The position numbers and the translations under genes were made by a program. Below, piece after piece: positions 2,535 to 13,946 of a DNA stretch of 14,042 nucleotides (position 1 is its first letter; each line of letters begins with the position of its first letter). A model generated the notes under the pieces. That model was given only the letters and a program-made list of their open reading frames with translations, was not told the DNA's origin and made no database searches. Where the stretch lies: NCBI GenBank assembly GCA_003456855.1, contig DMOO01000236.1:1-14042 (forward strand), in the 5' to 3' direction. This DNA is from Sphaerochaeta sp. Its GTDB lineage: Bacteria > Spirochaetota > Spirochaetia > Sphaerochaetales > Sphaerochaetaceae.

Positions 2535-4148
2535 TCAACCCATGGCATGGAGAATTTCAGGAAGAAGCTGCTTTTTCCTCGAAAGAACCCCAGGCATGTC
2601 GAAAACATGGTCCATTATCTGCACATAGGAGAGTTTGCCCTCGAACTTACTCGGGCTTGTAAGCAGGATGCTGTTCCCGTGGAGCACGTCGGTGACCATC
2701 AGTAGAATCCATGCATAGCCTCCGGCCTTGCTCATCTCGGCAAGCTTTCCAAGGTATTTCTCCCTGTAGTCCTCAAGGTCCTTGAGGGTCGGGACCTCGC
2801 ACTGCCCCACTCCGATCTTCATGCCGTTCTCGGTATAGTTCTTGAAGTCAGAGCTTATCACAGCCTCGGCATCGCGGGTCGAAAGCGACACGCTCTTGCT
2901 GAAGAGGTCCTTCCCGAAGGCCTGGAGGTCCTCCACCCCGCACATCGAGGCAAGCTGCTCTGCACTTGTCACGTCAATGGCCGTTGTGGTCGGGGACTTC
3001 AGGACCAGCGTGTCGCAGATGACACCGGTAAGCAGGACCTTTGCAGTAAGAGAATCAGGGATAAGGCCGTTCCTCAGGAACAGCTGATGGACTATCGTGC
3101 AGGTGCTTCCAAGGGGCTCGACATCGAAGAGAATCGGAGTGTTTGTCTTTGGCGCATCCACTCTATGATGGTCAATAACCTCAACAATGTTCGATTCTTC
3201 AACGCCTCTGATGCTCTGTGAGGCCTCGTTATGGTCTACAAGGATGACATTGTACTGTGGCTTGCTCAAAAAGCAGCGCCTTGTAACGTAGCCAACCCAG
3301 CTGTCACCGTCAAAGACTGCAAGTCCACGGAGCGAAGAGGAGGCGAGCATCTCCTTCGCATCGTCGAAGAGGTCTGTTATCTGCAGCCTTCCACCCTGCT
3401 TCCCCATTATGCGGCGAACAGGCTCGGCCATTCTGAGCCTTCTCATGGCCTCCGCGGTTCCAAGCTTTGTGGTGTAGACCAGACCGTTGTAGCCCGAGAA
3501 GTCCACATCCTCCACGGATTCCGTCGCTGTGATGATTATGGCTGGGATCTGCATCTTCATCGCATGTTCCAGGTGGTCCCTTCTGAGACCCATGACAAGC
3601 ATGCTCTGCTGATTCGGCCTGACGAAGTTCTTGAAGTTCTCTATGTCGGCTGCACCTGCAATAAGATTGGCCCTGAAGGAGTCAAAGGAGCTCTTCTTAA
3701 GAACCCTTCCTGGAATCACCGATGCGATGTTCTTTATCGAGAAGTCATAGACCGGGACCGTTGCGGCGTTGTCCTTCAGAAACCATGCTGTTATGTCGTC
3801 TACGCTGAGAAGCCCGTAGAATTGCCCCTTCTCCGTCACAGGGATGACAGACGGCTGCTTCATGCTGTAGACGTTGACCAGGTTGTAGATCGGAGAGTCC
3901 GCATCAAGCACGATGTCCGGCTTGAGCATTATGTCCGACACCTTCGGATGCACATCCCTCATGTAGGGCTGCGGCTCGAAGCCTATGTAGGAGAGCTGCT
4001 TCTTGACGCTGTCTGACAGATGTCCGCATCTGACGGGTATGTATTCGCTGGACGGATCCAGGATCTTCTTCAGCTGGGCATAGGCATAGGCTGAGCAGAC
4101 GCTGTCTATGTCCGGGTTTCTATGGCCTGTAATGTATACTTTCTTCAT
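2535..4148 (-). CDS. ppaC: Mn-dependent family II inorganic pyrophosphatase with CBS and DRTGG domains
   Basis: Cytoplasmic enzyme hydrolysing pyrophosphate to two phosphates, pulling biosynthetic reactions forward. The 537 residues are much longer than the ~310 of simple family II enzymes because a regulatory insert splits the catalytic DHH domain. Metal ligands of the N-terminal part are in TGHRNPDIDS (His9, Asp13, Asp15). Residues ~65-125 and ~245-295 are CBS halves and ~135-240 a DRTGG-type segment. The catalytic domain resumes with VDHNEAS (305-310), DHH (326-328) and CDT (378-380). The DHHA2 domain ends with the phosphate-binding SRKKQ (523-527). In this family CBS domains bind AMP/ADP (inhibitory) or ATP (activating), and DRTGG-bearing members respond to diadenosine polyphosphates. 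I chose the ATG at 4148 over a TTG 12 codons upstream: it gives the canonical N terminus and a well-placed promoter. Confidence 0.93.
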   Translation of the reverse strand: MKKVYITGHRNPDIDSVCSAYAYAQLKKILDPSSEYIPVRCGHLSDSVKKQLSYIGFEPQPYMRDVHPKVSDIMLKPDIVLDADSPIYNLVNVYSMKQPSVIPVTEKGQFYGLLSVDDITAWFLKDNAATVPVYDFSIKNIASVIPGRVLKKSSFDSFRANLIAGAADIENFKNFVRPNQQSMLVMGLRRDHLEHAMKMQIPAIIITATESVEDVDFSGYNGLVYTTKLGTAEAMRRLRMAEPVRRIMGKQGGRLQITDLFDDAKEMLASSSLRGLAVFDGDSWVGYVTRRCFLSKPQYNVILVDHNEASQSIRGVEESNIVEVIDHHRVDAPKTNTPILFDVEPLGSTCTIVHQLFLRNGLIPDSLTAKVLLTGVICDTLVLKSPTTTAIDVTSAEQLASMCGVEDLQAFGKDLFSKSVSLSTRDAEAVISSDFKNYTENGMKIGVGQCEVPTLKDLEDYREKYLGKLAEMSKAGGYAWILLMVTDVLHGNSILLTSPSKFEGKLSYVQIMDHVFDMPGVLSRKKQLLPEILHAMG

Positions 4149-4155
4149 CGGATTC

Positions 4156-4184
4156 AATCTACCCCCTGCAGCAGAGCAAGTCAA
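4156..4184 (-). promoter_or_regulatory. Promoter of the pyrophosphatase gene, predicted leaderless
   Basis: Minus strand: -35 TTGACT (4184-4179), 17-base spacer, -10 TAGATT (4161-4156), then 7 bases to the ATG at 4148. Expected transcription start therefore falls at or within a base of the ATG. A run of five G sits 13 bases before the ATG, too far for normal Shine-Dalgarno use and inside the promoter spacer. Confidence 0.55.
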
Positions 4185-4188
4185 TTAC

Positions 4189-4208
4189 ATATATAGTAAT
4201 ATATAGTA
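4189..4208. repeat. Tandem 10-base AT repeat upstream of the pyrophosphatase promoter
   Basis: Two perfect adjacent copies of ATATATAGTA (plus-strand reading) start four bases upstream of the pyrophosphatase -35 box. The AT-rich composition and position resemble an UP element, or a binding site in the divergent interval shared with glgP. Confidence 0.6.
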
Positions 4209-4236
4209 AAACTAAATAAAAGGGCCGCAATAACAA

Positions 4237-4266
4237 TTGCAACTTATTTCTTTTTTTTGATATACT
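4237..4266 (+). promoter_or_regulatory. Promoter of glgP
   Basis: -35 TTGCAA (4237-4242), an 18-base spacer including a run of eight T, and -10 TATACT (4261-4266). The predicted start near 4273 leaves a leader of about 70 bases. In that leader GGCATTG (4274-4280) can pair with CAGTGCC (4310-4316) over a long loop. The ribosome binding site is a modest AGGA before the ATG at 4343. Confidence 0.55.
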
Positions 4267-4342
4267 CACTCACGGCATTGGTAAGTTCTTTTAATTTTTA
4301 GAATAAACGCAGTGCCAATTTTTTCAAAAAACAGGAACTAGA

Positions 4343-6868
4343 ATGGCCACCAAAAAGACCGAGAAGCAGGAGAACACAAGAATCTCCCATACCGCAAGCG
4401 CAATCGAGCGCGATTTCGCAGAACACCTGAAATACACACAGGACGCAGATGTCTTCCACACAACCATGCAGGGCCGCTACAACGCCCTTGCCTATTCGAT
4501 CAGAGACAGGATCATCCACCAGTGGGACGTCTCCAGAAAGACACAGAGGGCAGCAAAGGCAAAGCGCGTCTACTACCTCTCCCTTGAGTTCCTCATGGGA
4601 AGGGCAATGACCAACAACATCACCAACATGGGCCTGAACGATGAGGTCGCAGAGGCTCTGAAGGACCTTGGATACAAGTACGAGGAGATTGCAGACGTTG
4701 AGCCGGATGCAGGACTCGGAAACGGAGGTCTCGGAAGACTCGCCGCTTGTTTCCTCGACTCGATGGCAACTCTGGACATCCCTTCCTTCGGCTACGGAAT
4801 CAGATACAACTACGGAATCTTCCGCCAGCAGATCAAGGACGGCTACCAGTTCGAGCAGCCGGACAACTGGCTCAGAGACGGAAACCCATGGGAGATTGCA
4901 AGACCGGACCTCAGATACACAGTCAACTTCGGCGGAAGGGTCGAGATGATCCATGAGAACGGACGCGACAACTACAAGTGGGTCGACACCGAGAAGATCG
5001 AGGGAATGGCCTACGACACACCGATAGTCGGTTACGGCGGAAAGACCATCAACACTCTCAGACTCTGGAGCGCAAAGGCCATCGAGGACTTCAGCTTCGC
5101 AGAGTTCAACGAAGGCGACTACACCAAGGCGGTTCGCGAGAAGGTCTCAGCGGAGAACATCTCACAGGTCCTCTACCCCAACGACACCCAGTACCTTGGA
5201 AAGGTCCTCAGACTGAAGCAGCAGTACTTCTTCGTGGCTTGCTCCCTTGCAGACATCATGAGAAGATTCAAGAGCATCAGCAACAACATCAACGAGCTCC
5301 CGAAGTACGCCGCAATCCAGATGAACGACACCCATCCTTCAATCGCGGTTGCAGAGCTGATGAGAATCCTGGTCGACCAGGAAGGTCTGGACTGGGACAA
5401 GGCCTGGGACATCACACGCCAGTGCATGGGTTACACGAACCACACCCTGATGCCTGAGGCACTCGAGAAGTGGCCTGTTCCAATGATGCAGCAGCTTCTT
5501 CCAAGACACATGCAGATCATCTTCGAGATCAACGCACGCTTCATCCCGAGGGCGGCAGCCTTCTTTCCGATGGACGGAAACGCAATCTCCAAAGTCAGCA
5601 TCATCGAGGAGACAAATCCCAAGAACGTCAGGATGGCGAACCTTGCAATCATCGGAAGCCATGCGGTCAACGGCGTCGCAGCCCTGCACACAGAGCTTCT
5701 GAAGAACTCCATGTTCCCAGAGTTCAACAAGATCTACCCAGAGAAGTTCCAGAACAAGACAAACGGAATCACTCCAAGACGCTGGCTGCTCTCAGCCAAC
5801 CCGGATCTTGCCTCCCTTATCACAGAGACAATCGGCGACGAGTGGATCACCAACGCCGAGAAGCTCTCCAACCTCAGACTCTATGCAGACGACAGGGCCT
5901 TTGCCCAGAAGTTCGCCAAGATCAAGGCCGCAAACAAGGTCCGTGCAGAGAAGTTCCTGAGGAGGGACTGTGGAATCATCCTGGATCCGAACACAATCTT
6001 CGATGTCCAGGTCAAGAGAATCCACGAGTACAAGAGACAGCTCCTGAACGCCTTCAACATCGTCATGATCTACCTGAGACTGAAGAACGACGAGGCCTAC
6101 AGGGCATCCTTCCCTCCAACGACCTTCCTCTTCGGTGGAAAGAGCGCGCCTGGCTACGTCAACGCCAAGCTCTCCATCAAGTTCATCAACTCCGTGGCTG
6201 CAATGATCAACGCAGACCCACAGGTCAACAAGGTCCTGAAGGTCTTCTTCATGCCTAACTACAGGGTCACCATGGCGGAGAACATCATCCCGGCAACGAA
6301 CCTCAGCGAGCAGATCTCAACTGCAGGCCTCGAGGCTTCAGGAACCGGAAACATGAAGTTCATGCTCAACGGAGCCCTGACAATCGGAACACTCGACGGT
6401 GCAAACGTGGAGATCGAGCAGGAGGCAGGAAAGGACAACGTCTTCATCTTCGGCCACACCGAGGACCAGATCGCAGCCCTTCGCGGAAACTACGACCCGT
6501 ACGACTTCATCCTGATGGACGACGAGATCAGAGCAGCTGTCGAGCTGATCAGATCCAACTTCTTCAACATCGGTGAGCCGCACGCCTTCGACCAGCTGTT
6601 CCACGACATCTTCGACAACAAGGACAAGTACTTCATCTTCGCAGACCTGAGAATGTACGCAGACAGACACCAGGAAGCCATGAACCTCTACAGGGACAAC
6701 TTCAAGGAATTCAACAGAAAGGCCATCCTGAACGTAGCATCAAGCGGAAAGTTCTCATCTGACAGAACCATCAGAGAGTACGCGACGCAGATCTGGAACG
6801 TGGGAAGCATCCCTGTTCCACTCAACACAGATGTCGACACCTCAATCGAGGATGCAAGAAGACACTGA
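4343..6868 (+). CDS. glgP: Glycogen/maltodextrin phosphorylase (GT35)
   Basis: PLP-dependent enzyme that releases glucose-1-phosphate from the non-reducing ends of alpha-1,4-glucans using phosphate; cytoplasmic, in glycogen or maltodextrin breakdown. The 841 residues match the family (about 800-850) and cover it end to end. Signature blocks include LGNGGLGRLAACFLDS (from residue 125), YGIRYNYGIFRQ, QMNDTHPSIAVAELMR, NGITPRRWL, and the cofactor motif EASGTGNMK with PLP lysine at 672, followed by FMLNGALTIGTLDGANVEI. Codon choice is very biased (Asn nearly always AAC, Lys AAG, Ile ATC), more so than in the single-gene units downstream, which suggests high expression. It stands alone, with its own promoter and terminator and no other glg gene in view. 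Preference for glycogen over maltodextrin cannot be read from sequence alone. Confidence 0.96.
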   Translation: MATKKTEKQENTRISHTASAIERDFAEHLKYTQDADVFHTTMQGRYNALAYSIRDRIIHQWDVSRKTQRAAKAKRVYYLSLEFLMGRAMTNNITNMGLNDEVAEALKDLGYKYEEIADVEPDAGLGNGGLGRLAACFLDSMATLDIPSFGYGIRYNYGIFRQQIKDGYQFEQPDNWLRDGNPWEIARPDLRYTVNFGGRVEMIHENGRDNYKWVDTEKIEGMAYDTPIVGYGGKTINTLRLWSAKAIEDFSFAEFNEGDYTKAVREKVSAENISQVLYPNDTQYLGKVLRLKQQYFFVACSLADIMRRFKSISNNINELPKYAAIQMNDTHPSIAVAELMRILVDQEGLDWDKAWDITRQCMGYTNHTLMPEALEKWPVPMMQQLLPRHMQIIFEINARFIPRAAAFFPMDGNAISKVSIIEETNPKNVRMANLAIIGSHAVNGVAALHTELLKNSMFPEFNKIYPEKFQNKTNGITPRRWLLSANPDLASLITETIGDEWITNAEKLSNLRLYADDRAFAQKFAKIKAANKVRAEKFLRRDCGIILDPNTIFDVQVKRIHEYKRQLLNAFNIVMIYLRLKNDEAYRASFPPTTFLFGGKSAPGYVNAKLSIKFINSVAAMINADPQVNKVLKVFFMPNYRVTMAENIIPATNLSEQISTAGLEASGTGNMKFMLNGALTIGTLDGANVEIEQEAGKDNVFIFGHTEDQIAALRGNYDPYDFILMDDEIRAAVELIRSNFFNIGEPHAFDQLFHDIFDNKDKYFIFADLRMYADRHQEAMNLYRDNFKEFNRKAILNVASSGKFSSDRTIREYATQIWNVGSIPVPLNTDVDTSIEDARRH

Positions 6869-6890
6869 GAAACAGAAATGCTTTGATACA

Positions 6891-6925
6891 GGCAGCCAGG
6901 ACGCAGGTTCTGGCTGTTTTTCTTT
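6891..6925 (+). terminator. Intrinsic terminator of glgP
   Basis: The stem CAGCCAG (6893-6899) pairs with CTGGCTG (6910-6916); G-U and A-U pairs inside extend it to nine pairs around a six-base loop. TTTTT-C-TTT follows. It sits 24 bases after the glgP stop. On the minus strand the hairpin is not followed by a T run, so it would not act as an intrinsic terminator for the convergent DUF554 gene, whose stop codon overlaps its T-tract. Confidence 0.85.
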
Positions 6926-7622
6926 ACAGGACCTTGTCCGCCAGGATTCCAAGGAACGGTGCGAAGATCAGTGCAGGGATGAAGTTCCCCGTCTTGAACT
7001 TGCGGATGTTCAGCAAGCCCAGGCCTATCATAAGAAGAAGCACACCACCCTCTGCCGAGAGCTCGTTGATGCCGATCTCACCGATACGTGGCTCGATCCA
7101 GCCTCCTGCCAAGGTGAAGAAACCCTGGTAGATGAAGACGCATATGAAGGAGAACATGACTCCCAGCCCATATATGGAGGCGAAGACCACCGCTATGCAG
7201 CCGTCCATGACGGACTTTATGAGGATTGTGGTCATGTCCCCTGTGGTTCCCGCCTGGATGGAACCTACAACGGCCATCGCCCCTGAGCAGAACAGAACCG
7301 ATGCCGTCAGGAAGCCCTGTGCAAAGCTCTGAGTACCGTTCTGCACGTCACTGTGTGTGGCCTTTCCAAGCTTGTCACCCAAGGACAGCACCCTATCCTC
7401 TATCTTGAGCAGATAGCCGATGGCTCCGCCAATCAGAAGGGCAAGCAGAAGCACCAGTGCGTTTGATGTTGCAATGGACATCTGGATCCCCATGACGATG
7501 GTGATAAGCCCGCAGCAGGCGAAGACTATCTCCTTGAAACCTTCCTTGACATGCTTCCCCACAAGAAGCCCGATGAGAGAACCGATGACTATCGCAATGC
7601 AGTTGATTAAAACGGCCAACAT
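6924..7622 (-). CDS. DUF554 integral membrane protein
   Basis: Multi-pass inner-membrane protein of the DUF554 family (YdfK of Bacillus, YqgA of E. coli); no activity has been established that I know of. From the ATG at 7622 it has 232 residues, normal for the family. It opens MLAVLINCIAIVIGSLIGLL, the usual first helix with its glycine-rich G-S-x-x-G turn. Six or seven hydrophobic segments follow, with the conserved CGLITIVMGIQM, LLIGGAIGYLL, FCSGAMAVVGSIQAG and GGVLLLMIGLGLLNI. A TTG eight codons upstream would add MHFSILRA, but the ATG matches the family start and lies 7 bases after a good -10 box. It converges on glgP and diverges from the nucleotidyltransferase, 68 bases away. Confidence 0.9.
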   Translation of the reverse strand: MLAVLINCIAIVIGSLIGLLVGKHVKEGFKEIVFACCGLITIVMGIQMSIATSNALVLLLALLIGGAIGYLLKIEDRVLSLGDKLGKATHSDVQNGTQSFAQGFLTASVLFCSGAMAVVGSIQAGTTGDMTTILIKSVMDGCIAVVFASIYGLGVMFSFICVFIYQGFFTLAGGWIEPRIGEIGINELSAEGGVLLLMIGLGLLNIRKFKTGNFIPALIFAPFLGILADKVL

Positions 7623-7629
7623 GGCTCGA

Positions 7630-7658
7630 AGTATAGAAAAATGCAAAAAAATGGTAAA
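7630..7658 (-). promoter_or_regulatory. Promoter of the DUF554 gene, predicted leaderless
   Basis: Minus strand: -35 TTTACC (7658-7653), 17-base AT-rich spacer, -10 TATACT (7635-7630), then 7 bases (TCGAGCC) to the ATG at 7622. No Shine-Dalgarno sequence is present, and the expected start site is at the ATG. Confidence 0.6.
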
Positions 7659-7665
7659 TAGATGG

Positions 7666-7671
7666 TATAGT
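7666..7671 (+). promoter_or_regulatory. Possible -10 box of the nucleotidyltransferase gene
   Basis: TATAGT lies 19 bases before the ATG at 7691, with a GGAG ribosome binding site between. No convincing -35 is visible at 16-18 bases upstream, where the DNA is A-rich and already occupied by the divergent DUF554 promoter. Confidence 0.3.
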
Positions 7672-7690
7672 TATTCACTGGAGATTGATT

Positions 7691-8326
7691 ATGGACATTG
7701 TCATGCTTGCAGCCGGTTCCTCGAGTAGGATGGGAGATACGAACAAGCTCCTTCTTACCTACAATGACCTTCCCATGGTGGCGTACAGCTGCCTTGAGGC
7801 CCTGAAGTTCCTAGCACAATATGCGGATAGGAATGATGAGAGCTGCAGGCTCATAGTGGTCACAGGCTACCGCAGGCAGTCCACTGAAAAGGCCCTCGAG
7901 ACCTGCAAAGCCTTCATGGAAGGCACCAATTCAAGGCTTGAGATGCTGATCGTGAACAATCCTGACTACAGAAACGGCCAGTTCAGCTCAACAAAGATCG
8001 GAGTGAGCCAAATCAATGACGGACCTTTCTTCATATCCCTTGCAGACATGCCGTTTATAACCGCCGCACACTATGAGAAGCTGGTTCCGATGCTTGAGAG
8101 CCACGATGCGGTGCGTCCTTTCAGCATAAAAGACAAGGACAGGGTGCCCGGACACCCTGTCCTGCATGCTTCAAGACTTAAGGAAATGATAACAAAATGT
8201 CCTGATGACTATTCAGTGAGCAAGATTCTAAAGTCATGTGATGTATATGAGCCATCATTTAATGATGATTCATGGTCAAAGGACATAGATTACGTCCAGG
8301 ACTACGAGAATCTGGACAGAAAATAG
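7691..8326 (+). CDS. MobA/MocA-like nucleotidyltransferase
   Basis: Rossmann-like NTP transferase of the NTP_transf_3 type, related to enzymes such as MocA and MobA that add CMP or GMP to the molybdenum cofactor. The 211 residues contain the nucleotide-binding loop LAAGSSSRMG (residues 6-15) with the following Lys19, the segment NPDYRNGQFSSTKIG, the metal-binding LADMPFIT (Asp in the LADMP motif), and PGHPVLH, in family order. It ends with DIDYVQDYENL, like the DIDTPEDY tail of MocA relatives. The ATG at 7691 has GGAG seven bases upstream and is preferred to a TTG two codons earlier. No molybdenum-cofactor or xanthine-dehydrogenase gene is nearby, so the substrate is unknown; CDP-sugar or other nucleotide transfer remains possible. 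It converges on the Fic gene with four bases between stops. Confidence 0.85.
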   Translation: MDIVMLAAGSSSRMGDTNKLLLTYNDLPMVAYSCLEALKFLAQYADRNDESCRLIVVTGYRRQSTEKALETCKAFMEGTNSRLEMLIVNNPDYRNGQFSSTKIGVSQINDGPFFISLADMPFITAAHYEKLVPMLESHDAVRPFSIKDKDRVPGHPVLHASRLKEMITKCPDDYSVSKILKSCDVYEPSFNDDSWSKDIDYVQDYENLDRK

Positions 8327-8330
8327 GGAA

Positions 8331-9194
8331 TCAATTCATCTCAAGACCTGAAATCGCATTGTTATAGAGGAAGTTCTTTATCCTTTCGGTCTTTCCAGTG
8401 CTGTACATCTCTGGAAGAAGCGTGTTGAACTCCTCCATGTCCCTATCCTTGATTGTAAGCATCCCTGCACCATGGGAAAGAAGCATCTTGTTGGCAGCCG
8501 TCATGGCTGTCCTCTTGTTCCCATCCCAGAAAAGCTGGTTGTAGGCTATGTAGCAGAAAAGGGACAGGGCCCTGTTGGTGGCTGATTCATAGGAAGTGAC
8601 TATTGAACGGATATCCTTCTCCACCTTCTCCCTGACAGGGATTGCAGGTTTGTAGTCGGTCCCGGAGATGGCAACGCTTCCTGTTCTCAGAACACCCCAC
8701 TCCAGGGCCTCGTTCCTTGCAATGAAGGAATTGAGACCACAGATGTAGTCAAGATCGAGCTTTTCATCCACTGTCTGCAGCAGGTGCCTCCAGACATCCC
8801 TCATGTTCAGGATCGCAGTGATGTCCTCAAGCTGGACACCAGGGACATTCACGCCCTCGAGTATCGTCTTCGTCTGCGGGAACGTGACATTGCGGTTCTC
8901 CATTCTCATGCCGCAATAGACGTTCTCGTCCCACAGCCTTTTGGCGACATAGACGCTCTGCTTCCGGTCCAAGGCGAAAAGATCCGGAAAAGCCCCATCA
9001 CCTTCAGACACAAGAAGACTCTCGACTGTAGTCCCAAGAGCCTGTGCAAGGCTGTAGACAGTGCCAGCACTGCATTTATGCAAAACCTTCTTGCCGTTCA
9101 CAAGCTCACTGACGGTTGTATAAGGGAGATTCGCTTCCCTGGCCAAAGAGGCGATGCTTTTGTTCTTCTCTGATATGTAGTCCTTGAACGTCAT
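8331..9194 (-). CDS. HTH-Fic protein with an altered catalytic motif
   Basis: A 287-residue fusion of an N-terminal XRE-like helix-turn-helix (about residues 1-62: SIASLAREANLPYTTVSELVNGKKV, then YSLAQALGTTVESLL) and a Fic domain. Fic enzymes usually transfer AMP to protein hydroxyls using the motif HPFx(D/E)GN(G/K)R. Here the motif is QLFWDGNKR (220-228): the metal and phosphate residues D, G, N and R remain, but the catalytic His is Gln. A flap-like strand precedes it (LRTGSVAISGTDYKPAIP, 169-186), and the C-terminal block from GMLTIKDRDMEEFNTLLPEM to IKNFLYNNAI is also typical of this subfamily. It may have lost AMPylation, use other chemistry, or act mainly as a regulator. The ATG at 9194 is preferred over a TTG 14 codons upstream because the HTH starts here and a promoter ends six bases before it. 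No antitoxin-like neighbour is seen. Confidence 0.88.
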   Translation of the reverse strand: MTFKDYISEKNKSIASLAREANLPYTTVSELVNGKKVLHKCSAGTVYSLAQALGTTVESLLVSEGDGAFPDLFALDRKQSVYVAKRLWDENVYCGMRMENRNVTFPQTKTILEGVNVPGVQLEDITAILNMRDVWRHLLQTVDEKLDLDYICGLNSFIARNEALEWGVLRTGSVAISGTDYKPAIPVREKVEKDIRSIVTSYESATNRALSLFCYIAYNQLFWDGNKRTAMTAANKMLLSHGAGMLTIKDRDMEEFNTLLPEMYSTGKTERIKNFLYNNAISGLEMN

Positions 9195-9200
9195 GACAAA

Positions 9201-9229
9201 ATAATAACTGAATCCAGTCAATGATGCAA
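9201..9229 (-). promoter_or_regulatory. Promoter of the HTH-Fic gene, predicted leaderless
   Basis: Minus strand: -35 TTGCAT (9229-9224, weak), 17-base spacer, -10 TATTAT (9206-9201, five of six consensus bases), then six bases to the ATG at 9194. No Shine-Dalgarno is present upstream of the ATG. Confidence 0.55.
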
Positions 9230-9249
9230 CTATCAACTGAATTCAGTTA
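9205..9249. repeat. Paired palindromes over the fic promoter (candidate operators)
   Basis: Site A (9235-9248) is the perfect palindrome AACTGAATTCAGTT. Site B (9206-9219) is the near copy AACTGAATCCAGTC. Their centres are 29 bases apart. Site B fills most of the -35/-10 spacer and touches the -10 box; site A lies just upstream of the -35. This is the geometry expected for a repressor binding as paired dimers, most simply the HTH domain of the Fic protein itself. Confidence 0.75.
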
Positions 9250-9260
9250 TCTTGTCATTC

Positions 9261-11858
9261 TCAGTCGGCAAGCTGCCCAGGGACAACCCTCTCGATCACA
9301 AGCTGGCCGTGCGGAGCGCTGATTGCTATGCCATCACCCTCGCTGAAGCGACCGTGCAGCATATCCACAGCAAGCGGGTTCTCGACCATGGTCTGGATTG
9401 CACGCTTTACAGGTCTTGCGCCGTAGTCTGGGTCGAAGCCTGCCTCGCTGATCATATCGACCACGCTGTCATCCCACTTGAGGTGCAGATTCCTGTTCTC
9501 AAGCCTTGCAGCAAGCTTCTTCAGCTGCAGGGAGACGATTCCCGCAATCTGTGCCTTGCCAAGCTGGTTGAAGATGATGATCTCATCGATTCTGTTGATG
9601 AACTCAGGCTTGAACGATGCCCTGATGACCTCCATCACAGCCTCGTGACCGGTCTTTATATCAGGAGCCTCCATCAGCTGACGGCTTCCCAGGTTGCTTG
9701 TCATGATTATGATCGTGTTGGTGAAGTCCACCAGCCTTCCCTGTCCATCGGTCAGACGACCATCGTCCAGAATCTGGAGAAGGACATTGAAGACATCAGG
9801 ATGGGCCTTCTCGATCTCATCGAAGAGAACAACCGAGTACGGGCGTCTTCTGACGACCTCGGTGAGCTGACCACCCTCGTCATAGCCCACGTATCCAGGA
9901 GGTGCTCCAATCAGACGCGACACGCTGAACTTCTCCATGTACTCCGACATGTCGATTCTGGTCAGCGCCTTCTCGTCATCGAAGAGGAACGAGGCCAGAA
10001 CCTTTGCAAGCTCCGTCTTACCTACACCCGTAGGACCTGCGAACAGGAAGGATCCAAGAGGTCTGTGCTCGTCGCCGATTCCGGTCTTGTTACGCCTGAT
10101 CGCGTTGGACACCGCTGCGATTGCCTCGTCCTGACCGATCACACGCTCGGAGAGCGTCTTCTCAAGGTTCAGGTACTTCTGCATCTCGGAGCCCTGCATC
10201 TTCGCTGCCGGGATTCCCGTCCAGGAGGCAACGATTCTGGCGATGTCGTCCTCATCGACCTCCTCACGCAGGAGCTTGTTATCTCCCTGGATGCTCTTCA
10301 GGTGCTCGCTCTCCTCCTCGATCTCGCGCTGGAGCTGTGGAATCTGTCCGTGGACGATCTCTGCGGCCTTGGCGAAGTCTCCGTTGCGCTCGGCGATGCT
10401 CTCCTGGGTTCTGAGGTTCTCAAGAGCGGACTTCTTGTCACGGATGCTCTCGATGGCGTTTCTCTCGTTCTCCCACCTAAGGTGCTTTGCATCGCGCTCG
10501 TTGTTCAGATCGGCAAGCTCTGCATTGATCTTCTCAAGCCTGCTCTTTGAGGATTCGTCATCCTCTTTGGACAGAGCCTGCTGCTCGATCTTGAGCTTCA
10601 GGATCTTACGCTCAAGCTTGTCCAGCTCCTCCGGCTGGCTCTCAATCTCGATCTTCAGCTGGCTGGCAGCCTCATCGATCAGATCGATGGCCTTATCAGG
10701 CAGGAACCTGTTGGTTATGTAGCGGTTTGAAAGCACTGCGGCTGCCACAAGGGCATCGTCCTTGATCCTTACACCATGGTGGACCTCATAGCGGTCCTTG
10801 ATTCCACGAAGGATTGCAATGGTGTCCTCAACGGACGGTTCTGTGGCATAAACAGGCTGGAAACGACGCTCCAGAGCCTTGTCCTTCTCGATGTACTTTC
10901 TGTACTCATCAAGTGTGGTTGCACCGATTGCGTGCAGCTCTCCTCTTGCCAAGGCAGGCTTGATCAGGTTGGAGGCATCGGTGGAGCCCTCTGCCGCACC
11001 TGCACCGACAATGGTGTGAAGCTCATCTATGAAGAGGATTATCGAGCCCTCGCTGCGGGTTATCTCATTTACAACGGCCTTCAGACGCTCCTCGAACTCT
11101 CCACGGAACTTGGCTCCTGCAACCAGGGCACCGACGTCCAGGGAGAGAAGCTTCTTGTCCTTAAGCGAATCAGGGACATCGCCGCTGACGATTCTCTGGG
11201 CAAGGCCCTCGACTATTGCGGTCTTTCCGACACCAGGCTCTCCGATGAGAACCGGGTTGTTCTTGGTCTTCCTGGACAGGACCTGCATGACACGCCTGAT
11301 CTCCTCGTCACGGCCGATGACAGGGTCCATCTTCCCCTGCCTTGCGGCACGCGTCATGTCACGGCAGTACTTCTCAAGAGCCTGATACTTGCTCTCTGCA
11401 TCCTGGTCCGTCACTCTCTGGCTTCCACGTATGCTCTGCAGAGCCTGCATGATTGCATCACGGGTTATTCCATAGCGCTTGAGAAGACGGCCGATCTGTC
11501 CGTCATCGTCCAGAAGGGCAAGGATCACGTGCTCTGTGCTGACATATTCGTCCTTGAACTTGTCAGCTTCCGTCTGTGAGGCATTGAGAGTCTGGAGAAG
11601 CTTCTGGGAGATTCCGATGTTGACAGCTCCGCCGTAAGCCTTCGGCAGGCGCTCGACAATGCCGTGCGTCTCGTTCAGAAGAGCCTGGAAGTCCACGCCC
11701 ACCTTTGCGAACAGAGGCTCGGCGATGCCGTCCTGCTGCTGCAGCATGGACAGGAACATGTGCTCGTTCCCGATCTCAGCGTTGTTGTACCTGGTTGCCA
11801 GGTTCTCGGCCCCCTGCAGGGCCTCCTTCATTTTTATGGTGAATTTGTCTATGTTCAT
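9261..11858 (-). CDS. clpB: ATP-dependent disaggregase ClpB
   Basis: Hexameric AAA+ chaperone that, with DnaK, threads aggregated proteins through its central pore; cytoplasmic. The 865 residues are full length (E. coli 857). Order: Clp N-terminal repeats (about 1-145); first ATPase domain with Walker A GEPGVGKT (206-213), Walker B LFIDE and pore region [10 protein letters not shown]; long coiled-coil middle domain (about 400-530, rich in E, K, L and R) that marks ClpB rather than ClpA/ClpC; second ATPase domain with Walker A GPTGVGKT (608-615), pore loop GYVG (655-658) and Walker B VLFDE (677-681). The start is ATG 11858 with a weak GGGG six bases upstream. No CIRCE element is present. A promoter candidate and an inverted repeat lie in the 150-base interval shared with the divergent TetR gene. 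Confidence 0.97.
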
Positions 11859-11874
11859 ATTTTGCCCCGGAAAT

Positions 11875-11899
11875 AGTGTGGAATGTTGTGGGCCACACT
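11875..11899. repeat. Inverted repeat in the clpB 5' leader
   Basis: AGTGTGG (11875-11881) and CCACACT (11893-11899) are perfect inverted arms separated by 11 bases. The repeat ends 17 bases before the clpB ATG. The overlapping TGTGG-C-CCACA on the minus strand gives an alternative short pairing. It could be an RNA hairpin in the clpB leader or a DNA site for a stress regulator. Confidence 0.55.
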
Positions 11900-11913
11900 C
11901 ATTTCACAGCACT

Positions 11914-11942
11914 AAATTACAAAAACATGGTCAAATCGGCAA
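11914..11942 (-). promoter_or_regulatory. Possible clpB promoter
   Basis: Minus strand: TTGCCG (11942-11937), 17-base spacer, TAATTT (11919-11914). The match to sigma-70 consensus is poor, especially at -10. A nearby TTGACC (11934-11929) is a better -35 but has no good -10 at standard spacing. A dedicated heat-shock sigma factor might be used. Confidence 0.3.
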
Positions 11943-11973
11943 ATAATTGGTGTTCTTATGAAAAAATACTTCT

Positions 11974-12002
11974 TTGACGTATTAGACAAACTGTCATATA
12001 CT
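11974..12002 (+). promoter_or_regulatory. Promoter of the tetR-type gene, predicted leaderless, inside a palindrome
   Basis: -35 TTGACG (11974-11979), exactly 17 bases, -10 TATACT (11997-12002), then six bases to ATG 12009, so the expected start site is the A of the start codon. The promoter is covered by an imperfect palindrome: outer arms TTGAC (11974-11978) and GTCAA (12003-12007), inner arms GACA (11985-11988) and TGTC (11992-11995) around AAC. A dimeric repressor bound here would block RNA polymerase. Confidence 0.65.
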
Positions 12003-12008
12003 GTCAAT

Positions 12009-12596
12009 ATGCCGAAAAAGATCGACCACGAAAAAAGGAAGATAGAGATAATGTATGCTGCTCTCGAGGTTTACGCACAAGAGGGCAAGAATGCAAATCT
12101 CAGCCTCATAGCTTCAAAGTGTGGTCTTTCCCGTACAACGATCTATCAGTACTTCAAGGATGAGTCCGAACTCTACCACTACGCCGTCAAGCACACCACC
12201 GATCTGGCCTTCGATGCCTTCAATTCAGAGAAGTGGCAGGCCATAACGGATCCGGTGGAGAAGCTGTTGAAGACAACCCAGAGCATAATGGACATGGCAG
12301 ACACCTACGAGAAGCAGGTGGGCAACTTCCTGAAGATGATAGACAAGATCGACGGCCTGACTGACATGATCAAGCACAGGACCGCAAAGCTCAACCTCTA
12401 CTTCTCCCGTCTTGTAAGACAGGCGATCAAGGAGGAGCGCATGAAGAAGTGCAGCGCAAAGGGTTTTGCAGACAAGCTTGAGGTCCTTCTCGAGTCCTAC
12501 CTCTTCCACATGGTCTACTTCCCTCAGAACAAGACCGAGATCCGTGAGATCATCGCCGACTTCATCAAGTCGAACTCTCTGCCGAAGGCAAAATAA
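12009..12596 (+). CDS. TetR/AcrR-family transcriptional regulator
   Basis: DNA-binding repressor of the TetR type; the ligand and targets are unknown. The 195 residues fit the family. The N-terminal three-helix domain spans about residues 8-55: IMYAALEVYAQEGKNANLSL, then IASKCGLSRTTIYQYFKDES, with the typical TIYxYFKxxxEL recognition-helix end. The remaining ~140 residues are helical and variable, as expected for the ligand-binding and dimer domain. An in-frame ATG at 11958 would add 17 residues, but the -35 box lies downstream of it and it has no ribosome binding site, so I chose 12009. The operator-like palindrome over its promoter suggests autorepression. It diverges from clpB, but nothing shows that it controls clpB, since the palindrome is about 30 bases from the clpB promoter candidate. 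It abuts the next gene tail to tail without a gap. Confidence 0.9.
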   Translation: MPKKIDHEKRKIEIMYAALEVYAQEGKNANLSLIASKCGLSRTTIYQYFKDESELYHYAVKHTTDLAFDAFNSEKWQAITDPVEKLLKTTQSIMDMADTYEKQVGNFLKMIDKIDGLTDMIKHRTAKLNLYFSRLVRQAIKEERMKKCSAKGFADKLEVLLESYLFHMVYFPQNKTEIREIIADFIKSNSLPKAK

Positions 12597-13946
12597 TCAC
12601 CTCACCAAAAGCCCCATAGGGACCGGTCTCTCTGCGTCCGTGTTGTCCAGATAGCGGTCTGACACGTGCAGGCAGAGCTTCCCGTCCAGAAAGATCTCCG
12701 CAGACCCTCCTCCGTCAAGGTTTATTGCGTTCACCATGCCGATGGATTTGCAGTATCTGGCCAGCTCCAGAAGCGAGGCCCCACAGCTCTCCTTGCCATG
12801 CTGGTAGTAGAGTTTCGATGCCCCTTCGGCCCAGATGATGACAGGGTCGTTATCCGCATCGGAGCAGATCGCCATCCTTGGAGCCCTTGCATTCTGATAG
12901 TCCTGAGGATACAGAGTCGGCGGGAACGGGATCGAATCCTTGCCGAGGCTGTAGAAAGGAGAGCCGTACTCCTCCATTGCCACCCCGTCCTTGACGGCTG
13001 ACGAGCCGACCTGGATTCCGAACATGCAGTCCTCAAAGCCATGGTAGACCACCGGAGACGGGCAGATCTCGAGGTCCTCTGTGGTATGGAGCACAAAGCC
13101 CGCCATAGGAACCATCACCTGGCCTCCCTGATGGATGGCGACAACCTCATCGCCGACGATTATCAGATCAAGACCATCCTCCTTTGGGGTCAACCTTGTC
13201 TTCGGACGTCTGTAGACCGTGCAGTTCTCGCCATGCTTGAAGGTCCTTCCCTGGATGTCCATGGGCATGTTCTCCAGAGCAGGTCTGACAATGCTTGCCT
13301 TCCCGTCCAGATCCACAACAAGGGCCTCCCTGTCATTGAGTGGCGGCTGGGAGACCATGCCATCCTTGACGATCATCCCGAACGGGGTTCCAAGAATGTC
13401 ATATGGAGAGTCATGGTCGGTCAGATCAAAGATGAAGAAATGGCTGTTGCAGATAAGCTTCGGCTGTGGCTTCACCCCGCTCAGGTAGCCCATGTCAGCA
13501 CCCACTGCAACAATGCTAACCTCGGTTCTGTCCCCGAAGCCCCTAATGACGAAACCCCTTTCCTCCAAAGAATTTATGAAAGCCTCAACCTCCGGGTCGT
13601 CGAAGACCAGGCTCTTGTTCTCGTTGCGGATACGGCCCTCTTTCACAAGCTTTCTCAACCCTATCGAGGCTGCAATGTGCTTGTCGAAGACATTTCCGAA
13701 CTCAGTTTCGGTTGAAAACGGTATTTCGATGTCCTCTGGAACATGAAAGGCCAACATTGCTCCATACAACTCTTTGTGTTGGGCTATCATAAACATCTTG
13801 AACATCCTGGCAAGCTCGTCAAAGCACTCCTTTGACGGCTCAGGCTGCACGAACTCGAGGTCCTTCCACGCGAAACCGGACACTATCTGGTAGCGCTGGA
13901 TCTCCCCGTTATCATATCTGACTGTCTGAATCCGCGATTCCACCAT
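12597..13946 (-). CDS. Protein with C-terminal phosphodiester-glycosidase-like (NAGPA) domain
   Basis: A 449-residue protein. The C-terminal ~200 residues resemble the phosphodiester glycosidase family (PF09992, related to the enzyme that uncovers mannose-6-phosphate): RMAICSDADNDPVIIWAEG, then SLLELARYCKSIGMVNAINL, DGGGSAEIFLDG (411-422) and the closing ERPVPMGLLV. The first ~200 residues match nothing I recognise. No signal peptide or membrane helix is visible, so it looks cytoplasmic, whereas many relatives act outside the membrane. The start at 13946 has GAGGAG seven bases upstream and lies inside the 3' end of an upstream gene (35-base overlap), pointing to an operon with coupled translation. 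Its stop is adjacent to the tetR stop. The substrate is unknown. Confidence 0.7.
   Translation of the reverse strand: MVESRIQTVRYDNGEIQRYQIVSGFAWKDLEFVQPEPSKECFDELARMFKMFMIAQHKELYGAMLAFHVPEDIEIPFSTETEFGNVFDKHIAASIGLRKLVKEGRIRNENKSLVFDDPEVEAFINSLEERGFVIRGFGDRTEVSIVAVGADMGYLSGVKPQPKLICNSHFFIFDLTDHDSPYDILGTPFGMIVKDGMVSQPPLNDREALVVDLDGKASIVRPALENMPMDIQGRTFKHGENCTVYRRPKTRLTPKEDGLDLIIVGDEVVAIHQGGQVMVPMAGFVLHTTEDLEICPSPVVYHGFEDCMFGIQVGSSAVKDGVAMEEYGSPFYSLGKDSIPFPPTLYPQDYQNARAPRMAICSDADNDPVIIWAEGASKLYYQHGKESCGASLLELARYCKSIGMVNAINLDGGGSAEIFLDGKLCLHVSDRYLDNTDAERPVPMGLLVR

What the first reader, a model, noticed from the sequence alone, without database searches (positions are those of the whole stretch)
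4149..12008. Four unlinked genes share promoters that predict leaderless mRNAs
The pyrophosphatase, DUF554, HTH-Fic and TetR genes each have a -35/-10 pair with exactly 17 bases of spacer and a -10 box ending 7, 7, 6 and 6 bases before the ATG. The pairs are TTGACT/TAGATT, TTTACC/TATACT, TTGCAT/TATTAT and TTGACG/TATACT. None has a Shine-Dalgarno at usable spacing. Genes inside operons in the same window do have strong ones. So first genes of units appear to be translated from a 5' AUG, a genome-scale habit better known from Actinobacteria, Deinococcus and archaea. Sequence and spacing are seen directly; leaderless translation is inferred.
Basis: partly seen in the sequence, partly recalled or inferred. 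Interest (0 to 1): 0.75.

Follow-up and report, generated by a model that had tools for sequence, protein, structure and literature searches.

The report
Promoters abutting four start codons
In this stretch of bacterial DNA, four of nine genes that follow a gap or a divergent neighbour carry a promoter-like sequence pair placed 6 or 7 bases before the start codon, so their messages likely begin at the start codon itself, a mode of gene reading already known from other bacteria.

Summary
The sequence part of the finding is right: all four hexamer pairs are present, with 17-base spacers and 7, 7, 6 and 6 bases before the ATG. The placement exceeds chance: 4 of 9 first genes here, 3 of 82 in E. 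coli K-12, 2 of 527 non-start ATGs in the window; shuffles give about 3e-4, or about 0.004 after allowing for the choice of offset. Leaderless mRNA is therefore likely for DUF554, HTH-Fic and TetR. It is ambiguous for the pyrophosphatase, which has the strongest anti-SD match of the 13 starts scored (AGGGGGU, 12 bases from the ATG) and another promoter-like pair upstream. The wider claim is not supported as written: the other 5 of 9 first genes have SD-like sequences (two weak) and no such promoter. No genome is held for the window and no near relative was found, so genome-wide frequency could not be tested. Leaderless genes with a -10 box about 10 bases upstream are established in many bacterial groups. 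There are no transcript data for this locus. Ordinary in kind; worth a 5'-end map.

The parts
4156..4184 (-). promoter-like pair TTGACT-17-TAGATT, 7 bases before the ATG (4148) of the CBS/DHH-type pyrophosphatase
   Evidence: start codon supported by Met1 of solved pyrophosphatase 1k23 aligning to it; contains AGGGGGU, so the least certain of the four
2535..4148 (-). manganese-type pyrophosphatase with CBS domain (DHH, DHHA2; DRTGG match below cut-off)
   Evidence: Pfam; PDB
7630..7658 (-). promoter-like pair TTTACC-17-TATACT, 7 bases before the ATG (7622) of DUF554
   Evidence: no SD
6924..7622 (-). DUF554 protein
   Evidence: PF04474, 230 bits, profile position 2 at residue 3
9201..9229 (-). 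promoter-like pair TTGCAT-17-TATTAT, 6 bases before the ATG (9194) of HTH-Fic
   Evidence: weakest -35 (3 of 6); no SD
9199..9247 (-). two operator-like repeats (ACTGAATTCAGT type) 29 bases apart, one over the HTH-Fic -10 box, the other touching its -35
   Evidence: direct repeat 16 of 20, 0 of 500 shuffles
8331..9194 (-). Cro/C1-type HTH plus Fic protein
   Evidence: PF13443, PF02661
11974..12002 (+). promoter-like pair TTGACG-17-TATACT, 6 bases before the ATG (12009) of TetR
   Evidence: best of the four (10 of 12); no SD
12009..12596 (+). TetR-family regulator
   Evidence: PF00440 (searched from 12006); an in-frame ATG at 11958 is the rival start
7691..8326 (+). contrast case: MobA-like NTP transferase with TGGTATAGT extended -10 (by eye) and GGAG close to the ATG
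4343..6868 (+). contrast case: glycogen phosphorylase, first gene with weak SD (AGGA) and no abutting promoter

Best explanation
At least three of these four genes (DUF554, HTH-Fic, TetR), and possibly the pyrophosphatase, are likely transcribed from a sigma-70-type promoter whose predicted start point is the A of the ATG or the base before it, giving leaderless mRNAs that would be translated by ribosomes binding the 5' AUG directly. Shown: the hexamers, the spacing, the excess over chance, the lack of SD in three of four, and the SD-like matches of the other first genes. Inferred: that RNA polymerase uses these sites, that the 5' end is at the ATG, and that initiation does not need an SD. For HTH-Fic the promoter overlaps operator-like repeats, so autoregulation is predicted.
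For: Four exact geometries. 4 of 9 first genes against 3 of 82 E. coli first genes and 2 of 527 non-start ATGs; two hits in nine other 4-base offset bins of the window; holds at thresholds of 7, 8 and 9 of 12. No SD in three. The -10 part of the method shows the expected signal in a known leaderless organism: in D. deserti plasmid 1, -10 boxes at 5-8 bases in 15 of 59 first genes and 0 of 9 internal ones, against 6 of 82 and 2 of 69 in E. coli. Start codons fit the families: Met1 of 1k23, DUF554 profile position 2 at residue 3. Low GC3 (0.29-0.42) of the possible N-terminal extensions against 0.64-0.73 in the three genes they would extend.
Against: No transcript data. AGGGGGU (-11.9 kcal/mol) and another promoter-like pair (4327-4300, minus) make the pyrophosphatase ambiguous. 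TetR has an in-frame ATG at 11958 with a match of -5.4 kcal/mol at gap 4. HTH-Fic alone is not significant (P 0.058), the other three singly 0.002-0.021. At a threshold of 10 of 12 only 1 of 9 remains (P 0.099). Full -35/-10 scoring did not separate Deinococcus (2 of 82) from E. coli (3 of 82); only the -10 test did, and D. radiodurans MP1 gave only 3 of 23 by it. Thresholds were set after seeing the cases. A 2017 survey (PMC5397173, passages) warns that AT-rich bias at -20 to -10 cannot simply be put down to leaderless transcripts.
Confidence: 0.68

Rival explanations
1. The genes are transcribed from promoters further upstream and have ordinary leaders; the hexamers by the ATG are chance matches in AT-rich DNA or secondary promoters.
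For: The total of sigma-70-like sites in the window equals chance (11 against 8.8 +/- 3.4); the DNA upstream of the four genes is 67-71% AT; an alternative pair lies at 4327-4300 (-) for the pyrophosphatase, with an SD-like AGGGGGU.
Against: Dinucleotide-preserving shuffles of the same upstream DNA expect 0.4 of 9 hits and give 4 or more of 9 at about 3e-4; three of the four lack an SD that a leader would supply.
Confidence: 0.22
2. Some starts are wrong: TetR begins at ATG 11958 and the pair lies inside its coding sequence.
For: In-frame ATG with a GGUG-type match at gap 4, -5.4 kcal/mol.
Against: The 17-codon stretch has GC3 0.41 against 0.73 for the gene; the TetR_N domain starts at about residue 14 counted from ATG 12009.
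Confidence: 0.1

Closest known systems
Bacterial leaderless genes with a TA-like (-10) signal about 10 bases before the start (Zheng et al. 2011, PMC3160421; passages and sections 6-7 read)
   Same: TANNNT at the same distance (A at position 2 falls 11-12 bases before the start; their range is 8 to 14) and, in three of four, no SD; they find more leaderless genes in the transcription category, and two of the four here are regulators
   Different: Theirs is genome-wide; here only four genes can be seen
Leptospira interrogans leaderless transcripts by dRNA-seq (PMC5243855; abstract and passages read)
   Same: About 440 mRNAs with 5' UTR under 10 bases in a bacterium outside Actinobacteria and Deinococcus
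   Different: Mapped 5' ends there, none here; the taxon of this window is not established
Leaderless repressor mRNAs such as lambda cI and Tn1721 tetR (recalled; for cI only a reference-list entry in PMC9031893 was seen)
   Same: Regulator genes read from a promoter abutting the ATG
   Different: No homology tested; two of the four genes here are not regulators

Membership tests
bacterial leaderless gene | -10 box ending 5-8 bases before the start codon | tested here: met
   four genes
bacterial leaderless gene | no Shine-Dalgarno at usable spacing | tested here: inconclusive
   met for DUF554, HTH-Fic, TetR; pyrophosphatase has AGGGGGU 12 bases away
bacterial leaderless gene | AUG start codon | tested here: met
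   all four ATG
bacterial leaderless gene | mRNA 5' end within about 5 bases of the start | not testable with these tools
   needs RNA
bacterial leaderless gene | translation from the 5' AUG without leader | not testable with these tools
   needs reporter or ribosome profiling
genome with a leaderless habit | -10 enrichment at this offset over all first genes of the genome | not testable with these tools
   no genome held; within the window 4 of 9

The most novel reading that the evidence does not exclude
An uncultured bacterium without close relatives in the species-genome scan runs two translation modes side by side: leaderless messages for stand-alone genes and repressors, and strong SDs inside operons, at a rate near that of Deinococcus.
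Probability: 0.25. Interest if true: 0.5.

Novelty: new member of a known kind. Interest (0 to 1): 0.3.

Why it matters
If true for the whole genome, it would add a further lineage where start sites cannot be annotated by SD and where transcription and translation starts coincide. For these four genes it mainly settles the likely start codons and predicts translation behaviour. Leaderless genes are already reported in Spirochaetes, Firmicutes, Proteobacteria and others (PMC3160421), so the kind is not new.

Tried and rejected
Viral-contig scans gave four glgP-bearing contigs at 39-50% identity and nothing for HTH-Fic, pyrophosphatase or L11; these loci were not used. In the plasmid collection TetR had no match and HTH-Fic matched 451 records, all under 60% identity; these were not followed. 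The search for homologous proteins failed three times, so N-termini of close relatives were not compared. Taxon: L11 and L33 against the PDB did not single out a phylum; a likeness to Spirochaetales is my recollection only. A TetR operator palindrome that I saw by eye was dropped: the best palindrome in that region is another one, at shuffle P 0.29. The same test gave P 0.05 for HTH-Fic, 0.115 for the pyrophosphatase, 0.945 for DUF554 and 0.915 for clpB. Leptospira biflexa p74 (4 of 23 first genes by the -10 test, 1 of 23 by the full test) was too small to inform. Predicted folds of bases +1 to +60 were -4.6 to -9.8 kcal/mol for the four genes and -3.6 to -17.9 for the other eight; I did not test the difference. 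Rfam found only the two tRNAs. Paper searches for leaderless with Treponema plus 'transcription start' (0 papers) and with Borrelia plus dRNA-seq (2 papers, one of them the Leptospira paper) gave nothing nearer.

Full report
What is there. The four pairs exist as described, with 17-base spacers and -10 boxes ending 7, 7, 6 and 6 bases before ATG codons at 4148, 7622, 9194 (minus) and 12009 (plus). The genes are a DHH/DHHA2 pyrophosphatase with a CBS domain (and a DRTGG match below cut-off), DUF554, a Cro/C1-HTH plus Fic protein, and a TetR regulator. The pyrophosphatase start is well supported: Met1 of the solved enzyme 1k23 (from B. subtilis, recalled) aligns to this ATG when the longer frame is searched.

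Is it more than chance. I scored -35/-10 pairs (A2 and T6 required in the -10, spacer 16-18, at least 8 of 12 matches, at least 3 in the -35) ending 5-8 bases before the start. By a mechanical rule (divergent neighbour or gap of at least 40), nine window genes are first genes; 4 of 9 score, and two hits fall in the nine other 4-base offset bins together. In 150 kb of E. coli K-12 (G+C similar to the window's 52%, recalled), 3 of 82 first genes score and the offset profile is flat. Restricted to upstream DNA of at least 60% AT the numbers are 4 of 7 and 2 of 33 (P 0.005). Of 527 ATGs in the window that are not gene starts, 2 score. Shuffling each upstream region with dinucleotides kept expects 0.40 of 9 and gives 4 or more with probability 3e-4, or 0.004 if any of 11 offsets had been allowed. 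The result holds at thresholds 7, 8 and 9 but not 10 (1 of 9 against 0 of 82, P 0.099). These thresholds were chosen knowing the four cases, so the P values are optimistic.

Controls. A -10 box alone (at least 4 of 6) at this distance occurs in 15 of 59 first genes and 0 of 9 internal ones of Deinococcus deserti plasmid 1 (two stretches), 3 of 23 and 0 of 18 of D. radiodurans MP1, 6 of 82 and 2 of 69 of E. coli, 4 of 23 and 2 of 10 of Leptospira biflexa p74, and 4 of 9 and 0 of 3 of the window. The full -35/-10 score does not separate Deinococcus (2 of 82) from E. coli (3 of 82), so the strict 17-base pairs of the window are not the usual leaderless signature of that group.

Shine-Dalgarno. 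Duplex energies with a canonical 16S tail (assumed) are -2.2 (DUF554), -3.1 (HTH-Fic, 17 bases away) and +0.1 (TetR). The pyrophosphatase has AGGGGGU (-11.9), the strongest of the 13 starts scored. By eye it sits 12 bases from the ATG where the SDs of eight other genes sit at 3-6 in the same register; clpB was not counted. An alternative promoter-like pair lies further up at 4327-4300. Operon-internal rplA, nusG, secE and probably NAGPA have strong SDs, as stated. But five first genes (rplK, rpmG, glgP, NTP transferase, clpB) also have SD-like matches, weak for glgP (-4.3) and clpB (-5.0), and no abutting promoter, so leaderlessness is not a property of first genes as a class in this window. 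rplK and rpmG may really belong to a ribosomal operon; without them the count is 4 of 7.

Mechanism. [quoted passage not shown] The mRNA would then start at or one base before the AUG, and 70S ribosomes could bind it directly, as described for leaderless mRNAs (PMC9031893, abstract and passages). For HTH-Fic two operator-like repeats 29 bases apart lie over the -10 box and at the edge of the -35 (0 of 500 shuffles reach the direct-repeat score), so self-repression is predicted. A TetR palindrome seen by eye was not borne out.

What is known. Zheng et al. 2011 (PMC3160421; passages and sections 6-7) take a TA-like signal about 10 bases upstream as the mark of leaderless genes and report them in 207 of 953 bacterial genomes, among them 6 of 18 Spirochaetes (mean 3.9%) and 5 of 5 Deinococcus-Thermus (mean 39.4%). 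Leptospira interrogans has about 440 mRNAs with leaders under 10 bases by dRNA-seq (PMC5243855, passages). [quoted passage not shown] The finding is thus a new instance of a known kind.

Limits. No genome is held for the window, the one scan of species genomes found no near relative by the pyrophosphatase, and the protein database search failed three times. The taxon, the genome-wide rate and the conservation of these promoters remain untested.

Noticed in passing
window 9199-9247: Two operator-like copies (ACTGAATTCAGT type) 29 bases apart, one over the HTH-Fic -10 box and one touching its -35, suggesting self-repression.
   Followed up: yes
window 8331-9194: The Fic motif reads QLFWDGNKR where the usual motif (recalled) begins with His, so the Fic domain may not be catalytically typical.
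   Followed up: no
window 7623-7690: DUF554 and the NTP transferase diverge from 68 bases; the latter has an extended -10 (TGGTATAGT) and a very short predicted leader that still holds GGAG.
   Followed up: partly
window 11875-11899: An AGTGTGG / CCACACT inverted repeat with 11 bases between the arms lies before clpB; seen by eye, not tested at that gap length.
   Followed up: no
L023 (E. coli) 12803-13465: One of the three E. coli hits of the same test is envR, a repressor of the TetR family (family recalled).
   Followed up: no
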